Made by a program: the position numbers and the translations under genes
Shown: positions 3,343 through 27,417 of the stretch, one piece after another
Layout: every line of letters starts with the position of its first letter
Numbering within the stretch: the first letter of the stretch is position 1
Notes under the pieces: generated by a model
Database searches by the model: none
What the model saw: only the letters and a program-made list of their open reading frames with translations
Told to the model about the DNA's origin: nothing
Source: Limosilactobacillus sp.
GTDB taxonomy: Bacteria > Bacillota > Bacilli > Lactobacillales > Lactobacillaceae
Length of the DNA stretch: 64,000 nucleotides
Assembly (NCBI RefSeq): GCF_022482365.1
Contig: NZ_JAKVPE010000001.1
Span: forward strand, 1,612,001 to 1,676,000
Reading direction: 5' to 3'

Positions 3343-3500
3343 AAAAGTATTGGCAGGCACTTGCTCGCCTCAACATTTATAGTATAACGCATTTGTCATA
3401 AAAATACTAATTTTTTAAATATGTATTGAAAGAACGGAAAAATAGCCAGCGCTTGCTCAATTTAAGATGAAGAAAAACGCCTTCCCGCCCGGCATGGAGG

Positions 3501-3529
3501 TTGAAACGGGGACCAATTTACGGTACAGT
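3501..3529 (+). promoter_or_regulatory. Promoter of the rsmG-noc-parA-parB cluster
   Basis: TTGAAA (3501-3506), 17 bases, TACAGT (3524-3529). The predicted start near 3536 lies upstream of the ATG at 3578 and downstream of a possible earlier in-frame start at 3467. This supports the shorter RsmG. Confidence 0.6.
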
Positions 3530-25586: not shown

Positions 25587-25616
25587 GTGGTTTGTTGACT
25601 GTTAAGAAAATTGCAT

Positions 25617-25656
25617 GTGATATGTTACTTGTGATAAATCACATGTAACATATCAC
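25617..25656. repeat. 40-bp near-perfect palindrome
   Basis: Arms of 19 bp (25617-25635 and 25638-25656) with one mismatch enclose AA. Each arm itself holds GTGATATGTTAC and a TGTGAT core. It sits 30 bases after the pyrE terminator in AT-rich DNA. Confidence 0.8.
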
Positions 25657-25699
25657 ATTATTCATTATGTATTATGAATATAACACTTTCGGGGACTTT

Positions 25700-25900
25700 T
25701 AATTTTTGTAATGCAAATATTGCTGATTAGGCATATTGTGCAAGTAATGCCAATATTGCTAATAATGCTAATAATGCAGTGCATACTAATAATACAGATA
25801 ATACAATGCATACTGATATTACACGTTGACTAGTAATACGGATAATACATGTATACAGATTCATACATTGATACATACACATACACTAATACTAATGAGT
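25700..25900. repeat. Degenerate AT-rich short tandem repeats
   Basis: A stretch built from drifting copies of TAATGC/TAATAC and ATACAT words. It has no open reading frame and its composition differs sharply from the GC-rich genes on both sides. Confidence 0.55.
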
Positions 25901-25934
25901 TGATTGCTGCCGAAAACCTTATTTTTGCTTATAA

Positions 25935-25973
25935 AAAGGCCCTCAACAGATAGAATTTCTGCTGAGGGCCTTT
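25935..25973. terminator. Bidirectional terminator-like hairpin
   Basis: AAAGGCCCTCA pairs with TGAGGGCCTTT around a mostly unpaired loop. It has A/T tracts on both sides and so could end cfa transcripts on the minus strand as well as read-through from pyrE. Confidence 0.65.
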
Positions 25974-26009
25974 AATGTGCTGATCGTTAATTGCACTCGG
26001 ATTGATAAC

Positions 26010-26118
26010 GTGGAAACAAGCGAGTCCCTAGCATCTAGCTACGGACGAGAGCCGGCGCCTTCAGCGCCAACTCCCGCCCTAGGCTAGCTGTACGGGACTC
26101 CGAGGAGCTTGTTTCCAC
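26010..26118. repeat. Hairpin element A
   Basis: A 109-bp long-range inverted repeat. Outer arms GTGGAAACAAGC and GCTTGTTTCCAC are perfect, then AGTCCC/GGGACT, then TAGCT-type arms. A central GC-rich hairpin GGCGC-CTTCA-GCGCC lies at 26054-26068. It is closely related in core and architecture to element B, but its outer arms have a different sequence. It lies 3' of both pyrE (+) and cfa (-). Confidence 0.75.
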
Positions 26119-26130
26119 TCACTAGATAAC

Positions 26131-26237
26131 GTGCAATTAACTGCGGGCCTAGTGTCTAACTACTGACGAAAGCCGACGCCTTCAGCGCCAACTTCCGTCC
26201 GCAGTTAGCCATACGGCCCGCTGATCGTTAATTGCAC
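26131..26237. repeat. Hairpin element B
   Basis: A 107-bp inverted repeat with outer arms GTGCAATTAAC/GTTAATTGCAC, then GCGGGCC/GGCCCGC. Its core (GCCGACGCCTTCAGCGCCAA region, 26172-26191) is nearly the same as in element A. Both elements are preceded by GATAAC and followed by TCACT. Twenty bases of its right end recur at 25979-25998, which looks like the end of a third copy. Confidence 0.75.
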
Positions 26238-26241
26238 TCAC

Positions 26242-27417
26242 TTATTTAATCATATAATCCCGCGTCATCGGCAGGTTCTTGCCGGATGCACCCTTGGTGA
26301 TCAGGTATTGAATAACGTCGATGTTGCCGGACTCAAACGATGCGGCGCAGGCCTGCAGGTAGAGGTCCCACATCCGGGTGAAGCGTTCGCCCATCATGTC
26401 CTGGATCTGAGTGCGATGGGCGTTGAAGTTGGCGTCCCAGATCTCCAGGGTCCGTTGGTAGTGCCGCCGCAGCATTTCGATGTCGGCGATCTGCATTTGG
26501 TTTTCCTCGATGTGCTGGATCATTTCGACCAGGCCGGGAACGTAGCCACCCGGGAAGATGTACTTGTTGATCCAACCGTTGTAGGCACCGCCCTGTTGCC
26601 GGGTGATTCCGTGGATCAGGGCGACCCCGTCATCCTTTAAGTAGCGGTAGATGTCCTTGAAGTAGAGGCCAAGGTTTTCCTTGCCGACGTGTTCGAACAT
26701 GCCGACGGAGGTGATGTAGTCCCACTGCTGGTTGCCCAGTTCCCGGTAGTCAATCAGCTTGACTTCGGCAACGTCTTCTAAGCCGTCCTTCTTGATCTGA
26801 TCTTGGACGAAGCGGTATTGCTCCTCGCTCAGGGTCACCCCGGTTACCTTAAGCTTGTACTCCTTGGCCGCCGTCAGCATCAGGGTTCCCCAGCCGCAGC
26901 CGATGTCTAAGAAGGTCTTGCCGGGCTGTGGGTCGAGCTTCTTTAAGATGTGGTGGACCTTATCCTCCTGGGCCTTGGTCAGATCATCGCGGTTACCACC
27001 GGTGAAGTAGGCACAGGAGTAGGTCATCGTGTCGTCCAGCCAGAGCCGGTAGAAGTCGTTGCCGACGTCGTAGTGGCTCTGCACGTCCGATTCGCTTTCC
27101 TTTTCGGAGTGTCCCTGCTTGGGCATGAATTTACGGAACTTGGAATTGCGCATGAAGCTGCCGGCACTCTCGTAGGCGGATTCAATCAATGCTTGGATGC
27201 TGCCCTGAATTTCGATCTTACCATCCATGTATGCTTCCCCAAGTGCAATTGAGGCGTTCTTGGTGACGTCACGAATCGGAATCTTCTCCTTGAACGTGAT
27301 GGTAACCTCTGGTTCGCCGTCGCCGTAAACCACGCTGGAACCGTCCCAGAAGATGATCTTCACGGGAATGTTGAAAGAGTGGCTTAAGAGTGACTTGTAG
27401 AACGTCTTTTCTAACAT
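26242..27417 (-). CDS. cfa: Cyclopropane-fatty-acyl-phospholipid synthase
   Basis: A SAM-dependent enzyme that adds a methylene bridge to unsaturated acyl chains of membrane phospholipids, important for acid and freezing tolerance. The SAM site [13 protein letters not shown] lies near residues 168-180, preceded by [33 protein letters not shown] and the C-terminal lipid-binding part follow. The 391 residues are usual. An extended -10 (TGTTATAAT) lies about 35 bases upstream (27458-27453). Downstream are the paired hairpin elements. Confidence 0.95.

What the first reader, a model, noticed from the sequence alone, without database searches (positions are those of the whole stretch)
25979..26237. 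Two ~107-bp hairpin elements with a conserved core and rewritten but still paired arms
Elements A (26010-26118) and B (26131-26237) share a core around GCGCCTTCAGCGCCAACT and the flanks GATAAC and TCACT. Their outer arms differ completely: GTGGAAACAAGC/GCTTGTTTCCAC against GTGCAATTAAC/GTTAATTGCAC, and AGTCCC/GGGACT against GCGGGCC/GGCCCGC. In both, complementarity is perfect. That is covariation, which argues for selection on a folded RNA or cruciform rather than simple repeat copying. The right end of B recurs at 25979-25998, so a third copy may have been lost. They lie where pyrE and cfa transcripts converge. They could be a family of mobile palindromic elements that enter terminator hairpins, or a tandem structured RNA in the cfa 3' region.
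Basis: partly seen in the sequence, partly recalled or inferred. Interest (0 to 1): 0.72.

Follow-up and report, generated by a model that had tools for sequence, protein, structure and literature searches.

The report
Mobile hairpin cassette in mRNA tails
Two tandem hairpins behind a gene of a lactic acid bacterium belong to a large, uncatalogued family of RNA-folding repeats that mostly sit in one orientation between the end of a gene and its transcription terminator, and that come and go at such places between related species.

Summary
Rods B (26126-26241) and A (26005-26122) lie tandem in the 3' UTR of a cfa-like gene (minus strand); B begins directly after the stop codon. The own genome holds at least 26 rods; 33 of 50 Limosilactobacillus genomes, own included, have matches, and 11 of 40 genera sampled in the family, own included. 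No Rfam 15 family fits. On 42 diverse copies 32 of 39 pairs change on both sides and 97.6% of cells stay paired. Non-Watson-Crick cells are G-U on the gene-sense strand 413 times, A-C 23 times, so the sense RNA is what is kept. 76 of 130 rods start within 25 nt of a sense stop codon; the mirror test gives 3 of 130. In three relatives, 6 of 11 distinct rod sites have a clean empty allele elsewhere, each holding a plain hairpin that the cassette replaces. No target duplication was evident, and Y1 transposases do not track with rods. Best reading: a mobile, cis-acting 3' UTR cassette. Its effect on mRNA ends is inferred, not shown. A new variant of small structured repeats such as ERIC, SPRITE and REP.

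The parts
26126..26241 (-). Rod B: first rod after the cfa stop codon (5' end at 26241)
   Evidence: R1 match G000:C1:1638126-1638241, E 1.1e-26; fold -67.9 kcal/mol, z -11.15
26005..26122 (-). Rod A: second rod, different arm class, separated from B by 3 nt
   Evidence: R1 match G000:C1:1638005-1638122, E 4.1e-31; fold -74.0 kcal/mol, z -8.26
25979..26000 (-). Remnant: copy of the 5' arm of B, truncated before the core
   Evidence: 20 nt (25979-25998) identical to 26220-26239; a similar remnant follows the rod at cfa in G057; pairs with the 3' arm of B in the predicted fold of the whole UTR
25935..25973 (-). Intrinsic terminator of the cfa transcript (16-bp stem, then T-run)
   Evidence: inverted repeat 25935-25950/25958-25973, 94% complementary; T-run read from the sequence
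26242..27417 (-). Upstream gene whose 3' UTR holds the rods: cyclopropane-fatty-acid-synthase-like protein
   Evidence: ORF; PF02353 E 1.1e-96; NCBIfam cfa models match below their cut-offs

Best explanation
A and B are members of a mobile, structured 3' UTR cassette. SHOWN by sequence: (1) the core is a rod-like hairpin of about 115-120 nt with conserved internal loops, followed in many copies of the relatives by a short A/T-rich linker and a GAGGCTG..CAGCCTC-type terminator hairpin (a GAGGCTG-like word lies within 90 nt downstream of 74 of 130 rods, but of only 5 of 25 in the own genome). (2) It mostly lies in gene-sense orientation directly after a stop codon. (3) Pairing of the sense RNA is conserved while arm sequences change. 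(4) Presence differs between close relatives; where absent, a plain hairpin occupies the place. INFERRED: the rod acts in cis on the mRNA. Transcribed between stop codon and terminator, it forms a rigid duplex that shields the 3' end from 3'-to-5' exonucleases, or offers a double-strand-specific (RNase III-type) or linker cleavage site, setting mRNA half-life or releasing a terminator fragment. INFERRED: it spreads because a copy landing in a terminator brings or keeps a working terminator, so the insertion is nearly neutral. The enzyme is unknown; junctions without evident target duplication fit copying or recombination between hairpins better than classical cut-and-paste. Tandem copies such as B-A arise at a site and recombine through their shared core, giving hybrids and remnants.
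For: At least 26 rods in the own genome behind unrelated genes: of 10 upstream proteins scanned, 9 had Pfam matches, to a Clp-type ATPase, alanyl- and histidyl-tRNA synthetases, peptide deformylase, EamA transporter, phosphoribosyltransferase, solute-binding protein, AraC-type regulator and DeoC-like aldolase, besides cfa. 33 of 50 same-genus genomes, own included, have R1 matches (29 of 41 good ones; match counts include both strands of one rod). R2: 28 of 301 genomes and 11 of 40 genera of the family sample, own included. Covariation: 32 of 39 pairs with both-side changes, 97.6% of cells paired, score 0.638 against 0.246 in shuffles and at most 0.157 when slid. RNA strand: G-U 413 and A-C 23 among 99 distinct sense rows; 19 pair positions with 3 or more G-U, none with 3 or more A-C; G-U exceeds A-C in 20 of 20 genomes, 113 to 1 in 18 own-genome copies. 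Placement: 76 of 130 within 25 nt of a sense stop, 3 of 130 in the mirror test; in 54 with both stops under 300 nt, medians 6.5 and 76 nt. Empty alleles at 6 of 11 distinct sites.
Against: No expression data: transcription, half-life and cleavage are untested. 52 of 130 rods have no called sense stop within 40 nt upstream; these include second copies of tandems and perhaps ORFs missed by a mechanical caller, but some may be real exceptions. The flanking-arm test was negative (92 of 122 elements had a usable hairpin; observed 5.61, permuted 5.50 with sd 0.11, 47 of 300 permutations as high). Hybrid rods with poorly paired arms persist (L017; cfa 3' UTR of G057), so pairing is not needed everywhere. 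Middle-helix asymmetry is weak (G-U 14, A-C 4), so the RNA argument rests mainly on the apical helix (299 to 7). 17 of 50 genus genomes (12 of 41 good ones) have no match, so the cassette is dispensable. In one of the six empty sites (L165) the native hairpin has no T-run.
Confidence: 0.55

Rival explanations
1. Selfish miniature transposable element (REP- or MITE-like). The hairpin is kept because a transposase recognises it as single-stranded DNA; 3' UTRs and terminators are merely where insertions are tolerated.
For: Many dispersed copies, presence/absence between relatives, patchy distribution, nearly identical small inserts (one difference) at the same place in rods at different loci (L015 and L018), and a bias to 3' ends like other repeats (pneumococcal SPRITE, RUP, BOX; passages of PMC3049150).
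Against: A DNA hairpin needs no G-U on one strand, yet G-U exceeds A-C about 18 to 1. Orientation to the upstream gene is strongly biased, 76 against 3 of 130. No target duplication at 5 of 6 empty sites; the sixth shows only AAAA in an A-run. Y1 transposase presence is not linked to rods (22/11/9/8, Fisher p 0.37); other transposase families were not tested.
Confidence: 0.2
2. A vertically inherited host regulatory RNA (protein-binding 3' UTR element or source of a 3'-UTR-derived small RNA) that multiplied by ordinary duplication, with no dedicated mobility.
For: Strong sense placement, conserved internal loops and RNA-level covariation; some sites are shared between species (L179/L224, L182/L226, L184/L164).
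Against: Clean presence/absence at 6 distinct sites among close relatives; about two dozen loci in the own genome; no match in 17 of 50 genomes, including G001, G002, G024 and G067, whose cfa 3' part is 86-88% identical to the window's.
Confidence: 0.15
3. The paired arm rewriting comes from template switching at imperfect palindromes (one arm copied onto the other during replication), so covariation reflects a mutational process more than selection.
For: Middle arms are almost purely Watson-Crick (670 of 693 cells) and outer arms differ between copies as whole words. Hybrids with poorly paired arms exist as possible intermediates (L017).
Against: Correction would remove G-U pairs and act alike on both strands; the apical helix keeps 299 G-U against 7 A-C. 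Internal-loop mismatches are kept across species although correction would erase them.
Confidence: 0.08
4. The cassette moves through an RNA copy: the transcript tail (rod, linker, terminator) is reverse-transcribed and inserted at terminators, for example with a group II intron reverse transcriptase.
For: RNA-strand selection, sense orientation, and unit boundaries that match a transcript tail. RVT_1 occurs in 14 of 33 rod-bearing and 2 of 17 rod-free genomes (Fisher p 0.053).
Against: No RVT_1 match in the own genome, G057 or G008, which hold many rods. The association is weak and not corrected for kinship or assembly quality.
Confidence: 0.07

Closest known systems
ERIC / IRU (enterobacteria)
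   Same: 127-bp repeat, dispersed, transcribed with its neighbours; orientation-dependent effect on stability of the upstream transcript (passages of PMC2229807).
   Different: The table in PMC2229807 gives ERIC 7-bp inverted ends, TA at the termini and target duplication. Here no target duplication was evident, placement is biased to gene 3' ends in sense, and many copies bring a terminator.
[quoted passage not shown]
   Same: Repeat resembling a terminator, enriched close to gene 3' ends and between convergent genes, perhaps co-opted as terminator (passages of PMC3049150).
   Different: SPRITE is one 18-bp duplex plus a long U-rich tract, in S. pneumoniae, less in S. mitis and very rarely in other streptococci. 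Here a 115-120-nt rod with conserved internal loops precedes linker and terminator, and matches span 11 of 40 genera sampled.
REP elements with RAYT transposases
   Same: Palindromic, high copy, intergenic, also in arrays; a role in mRNA stabilisation has been hypothesised (abstract and passages of PMC3733652).
   Different: REPs are 20-40 bp with a GTAG or CGTC tag; here the unit is several times longer and Y1 transposases do not track with it.
bcr1 of the Bacillus cereus group
   Same: Dispersed structured repeat of about 155 nt in Firmicutes (recalled, not tested here).
   Different: Sequence and structure were not compared; no Rfam model fits the rods.

Membership tests
MITE (miniature inverted-repeat transposable element) | target-site duplication at the insertion | tested here: not met
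   No direct repeat at the junctions of 5 of 6 empty sites; the sixth shows only AAAA in an A-run. Junctions are those of the alignments; at L165 the right junction lies beyond the terminator hairpin
MITE (miniature inverted-repeat transposable element) | terminal inverted repeats shared with an autonomous element | tested here: inconclusive
   The rod ends are complementary, but the variable unit also includes linker and terminator hairpin; no autonomous relative was searched for
REP/RAYT elements | association with Y1 (IS200/IS605-type) tyrosine transposase | tested here: not met
   PF01797 in 22 of 33 rod-bearing and 9 of 17 rod-free genomes, p 0.37
Any described RNA family (Rfam 15) | covariance-model match over the rods | tested here: not met
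   Own locus at E up to 5: over the rods one chance-level microRNA match (16.3 bits, gathering 110, E 4.9). 10 loci from 9 genomes: no match at gathering score
SPRITE-like mobile terminators | unit contains an intrinsic terminator and lies at gene 3' ends | tested here: inconclusive
   Position met for 76 of 130; in the empty-site examples the unit includes a hairpin, but only 5 of 25 own-genome rods have a GAGGCTG-like word downstream, and termination itself cannot be tested
Conserved structured RNA | compensatory changes above shuffled controls and strand-specific G-U use | tested here: met

The most novel reading that the evidence does not exclude
A class of RNA-selected mobile terminator cassettes: the transcript tail itself (rod, linker, terminator) is the mobile unit, copied into other genes' terminators in sense orientation, perhaps through RNA, so that a genome's 3' UTRs are repeatedly replaced by a shared post-transcriptional control module across a whole bacterial family.
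Probability: 0.2. Interest if true: 0.85.

Novelty: new variant of a known kind. Interest (0 to 1): 0.64.

Why it matters
Bacterial 3' UTRs are seen mostly as gene-specific. Here one large structured module, with no match in Rfam 15, stands behind unrelated genes in many lactic acid bacteria, with pairing conserved at the RNA level. If it sets mRNA stability or processing, gain and loss of a single cassette would rewire post-transcriptional control of many genes, in a genus with probiotic and food species. The six filled/empty site pairs are natural experiments that can be measured directly.

Tried and rejected
Ordinary terminator or chance palindrome: rejected by fold z-scores, copy number and the separate cfa terminator. 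Known RNA family: no real match in Rfam 15 over the rods. Phage or plasmid element: no match of 25900-26300 in the phage collection, one weak match (E 8e-3) in one L. fermentum record among the plasmids. Y1 transposase as mover: no association. Reverse transcriptase as mover: weak association, absent from several rod-rich genomes. General rule that native terminator arms flank the cassette: suggested by L203, L165 and L063, but a within-genome permutation over 92 elements was negative, so it is claimed only for 3 empty-site examples. Conserved switch between rod B and the remnant: the fold of the window UTR shows it, but in G057 the corresponding 3' arm differs, so it is not put forward.

Literature: searches listed nothing on such elements in Limosilactobacillus, judged from titles and starts of abstracts (two returned no paper; 67 and 71 were cut lists of broader searches). 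Passages only were read of PMC2267715 ('Lactobacillus' occurs once, L. johnsonii), PMC2229807, PMC3733652, PMC3049150 and PMC10969869. The library holds open-licence papers only, so absence there is not absence from print.

Limits of counts: match numbers count a rod twice when both strands match, and its list of matches is cut. One search used strict filters and scored 12 candidates per genome, so its counts are lower bounds. Searches used 99 distinct sense rows out of 150 aligned (of 152 matches); 44 rows on the strand opposite to a locus's best match and 7 duplicate rows were dropped. The 105 rods outside the own genome came from the best-scoring listed matches, not from a random sample, and include orthologues (such as G032/G061). 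The structures were defined on the sense strand. One search covered 30 of the 46 cfa loci.

Full report
OBSERVATION. The two elements are real and were described accurately. On the plus strand they fold at -61.9 (A) and -49.3 (B) kcal/mol; on the minus strand, where G-U pairs close the core, at -74.0 and -67.9, with z-scores of -8.26 and -11.15 against 200 shuffles each. The minus strand is the sense strand of the neighbouring gene, a cyclopropane-fatty-acid-synthase-like protein (PF02353, E 1.1e-96; NCBIfam cfa models match below cut-off). Reading that gene's transcript: stop codon (26244-26242), rod B (26241-26126), 3 nt, rod A (26122-26005), a truncated copy of B's 5' arm (26000-25979), then an intrinsic terminator (25973-25935). 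PyrE is convergent; its stop codon lies about 420 bp beyond that terminator.

FAMILY. A DNA search of the own genome gave 27 matches that resolve to 25 rods (one is the opposite strand of A, one a second piece of another rod). A covariance model (R1, from 21 copies) added at least one more, at 1227405-1227522. In the genus, 33 of 50 genomes (own included) match R1 at E <= 0.01, 29 of 41 good-quality ones; match counts reach 71 in G008 but count both strands of a rod. A second model (R2, 42 diverse copies) matches 28 of 301 genomes sampled from the family, in 11 of 40 genera, own included. Several distant copies keep core words such as TAGCCTAG..GTAGCTA, and some stand in tandem: three in L245 (G329), two in L253 (G336), three in L257 (G244). 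No Rfam 15 family fits.

RNA-LEVEL SELECTION. On 42 diverse copies, 97.6% of 1631 cells are standard pairs, 32 of 39 pairs show changes on both sides, and the covariation score is 0.638 against 0.246 in shuffles; sliding partners by 1-3 columns drops it to 0.157 or less. A further test asks on which strand imperfect pairs are tolerated: a decayed Watson-Crick pair should become G-U or A-C on the sense strand about equally if only DNA pairing mattered. Among 99 distinct sense rows there are 413 G-U and 23 A-C cells; 19 pair positions have at least 3 G-U and none has 3 A-C. Restricting to positions whose commonest pair is Watson-Crick gives 244 to 21, and the bias holds in each of 20 genomes; 18 own-genome copies give 113 to 1. 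By helix the ratio is 69:9 (outer), 14:4 (middle), 31:3 (inner) and 299:7 (apical). The apical helix is thus clearly kept as sense RNA, while the middle arms are almost purely Watson-Crick and leave room for DNA-level arm correction. The structure was defined on the sense strand and a strand-biased mutation rate could add to the asymmetry; neither seems able to give ratios of this size (inference).

PLACEMENT. With ORFs of at least 100 codons called mechanically, 76 of 130 rods (25 own-genome, 105 from relatives) start within 25 nt after a stop codon of a sense gene; only 3 of 130 end within 25 nt of an antisense stop (mirror control). In the 54 with both stops within 300 nt, median distances are 6.5 and 76 nt, and the sense stop is nearer in 50. 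52 of 130 have no called sense stop within 40 nt. Ten upstream proteins of own-genome copies were scanned: 9 had Pfam matches, to different families. Downstream, a GAGGCTG-like word of the typical terminator lies within 90 nt of 74 of 130 rods, but of only 5 of 25 own-genome rods, which use varied terminators.

MOBILITY. Three syntenic stretches of 400 kb from G066, G065 and G063 hold 14 rods at 11 distinct sites. Six sites have a clean empty allele in at least one other genome: L165, L172, L179 (the same site as the first rod of L224), L203, L184 and L225. The remaining five were shared, rearranged or not alignable. The empty allele carries a hairpin of -17.8 to -24.0 kcal/mol at 6 of 6 sites, followed by four or more T in at least one empty genome at 5 of 6 (not L165). 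The filled allele has rod, linker and another hairpin instead. In L203, L165 and L179 lower arms of the native hairpin remain on both sides (for example GAAGGT..CCACCTTC in L203, by eye). That pattern is not general: left and right flanks of 92 elements are no more complementary than permuted ones. No target duplication is evident. At the cfa gene, R2 finds a rod next to it in 4 of 30 genomes examined: G000, G057, G008 and G022. G001, G002, G024 and G067 have a plain terminator there (by eye) and no R1 match anywhere.

TANDEMS AND HYBRIDS. A B-A pair recurs at 880508-880744 of the own genome. L017 joins the 5' half of a B-type rod to the 3' half of an A-type rod, with poorly paired outer arms, and G057 has another such hybrid behind cfa followed by the same remnant. 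Recombination between tandem copies through the shared core is the simplest explanation. In the predicted fold of the whole cfa UTR (-178.1 kcal/mol, z -13.35) the remnant pairs with B's 3' arm around A.

MECHANISM. Shown: mobile distribution, sense placement and RNA-level pairing. Inferred: a cis effect on the mRNA end (exonuclease block or processing by a double-strand-specific nuclease) and spread made nearly neutral because termination is kept. The mover is unknown: Y1 transposases do not track with rods, and reverse transcriptases do so only weakly (14 of 33 against 2 of 17, p 0.053) and are missing from the own genome. Other transposase families were not tested.

COMPARISON. It works most like ERIC (structured, transcribed, orientation-dependent; PMC2229807, passages) and SPRITE (terminator-like repeat at 3' ends; PMC3049150, passages), but is not filed as a member of either: size, ends, target duplication and taxonomic range differ. 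I file it as a new variant of small structured bacterial repeats.

Noticed in passing
own genome rods L015, L018, L021, L025; also L161 (G010), L165 and L172 (G066), L224 (G063): A tiny insert around CGACGCGAAGCTAG sits at different positions inside rods. The 16-mer CGACGCGAAGCTAGCC has 16 matches with up to 2 mismatches in the own genome (7 exact) against 3 for the reversed pattern; some of the 16 look like chance hits in genes. At one orthologous site the rod has it in G063 and not in G066. It contains GCGAAGC, recalled as an exceptionally stable DNA mini-hairpin; a second insert type (L024, L025, L162) contains its complement GCTTCGC.
   Followed up: partly
own genome C1 near 249814, 331578, 618125, 1082618, 1544491, 2236756 (L038, L039, L045, L042, L046, L044): A second dispersed family of large hairpin elements (GGTGGGACAGAACTCGCTTGCGAGTTC...) carries the same tiny inserts, in L044 and L046 on both arms as complementary pairs.
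   Followed up: no
window 25616-25657: Between the pyrE-side and cfa-side terminators lies an A/T-rich stretch with a near-perfect palindrome (TGTGATATGTTACTTGTGATAAATCACATGTAACATATCACA) and short AATGC/AATAC-type repeats after it (by eye).
   Followed up: no
L253 (G336), L257 (G244), L245 (G329): In other genera of the family, related rods (G+C-rich in G336 and G244) form head-to-tail arrays of two or three matched copies.
   Followed up: no
L164 (G066), terminator after the rod at 3397-3516: An insertion of about 1.5 kb, by eye an insertion sequence, sits inside the terminator hairpin that follows a rod; G065 has the uninterrupted site.
   Followed up: no
L263 (G010), behind cfa: By eye a deletion remnant: only the outermost arms of a rod remain, joined by part of the tiny insert.
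   Followed up: no
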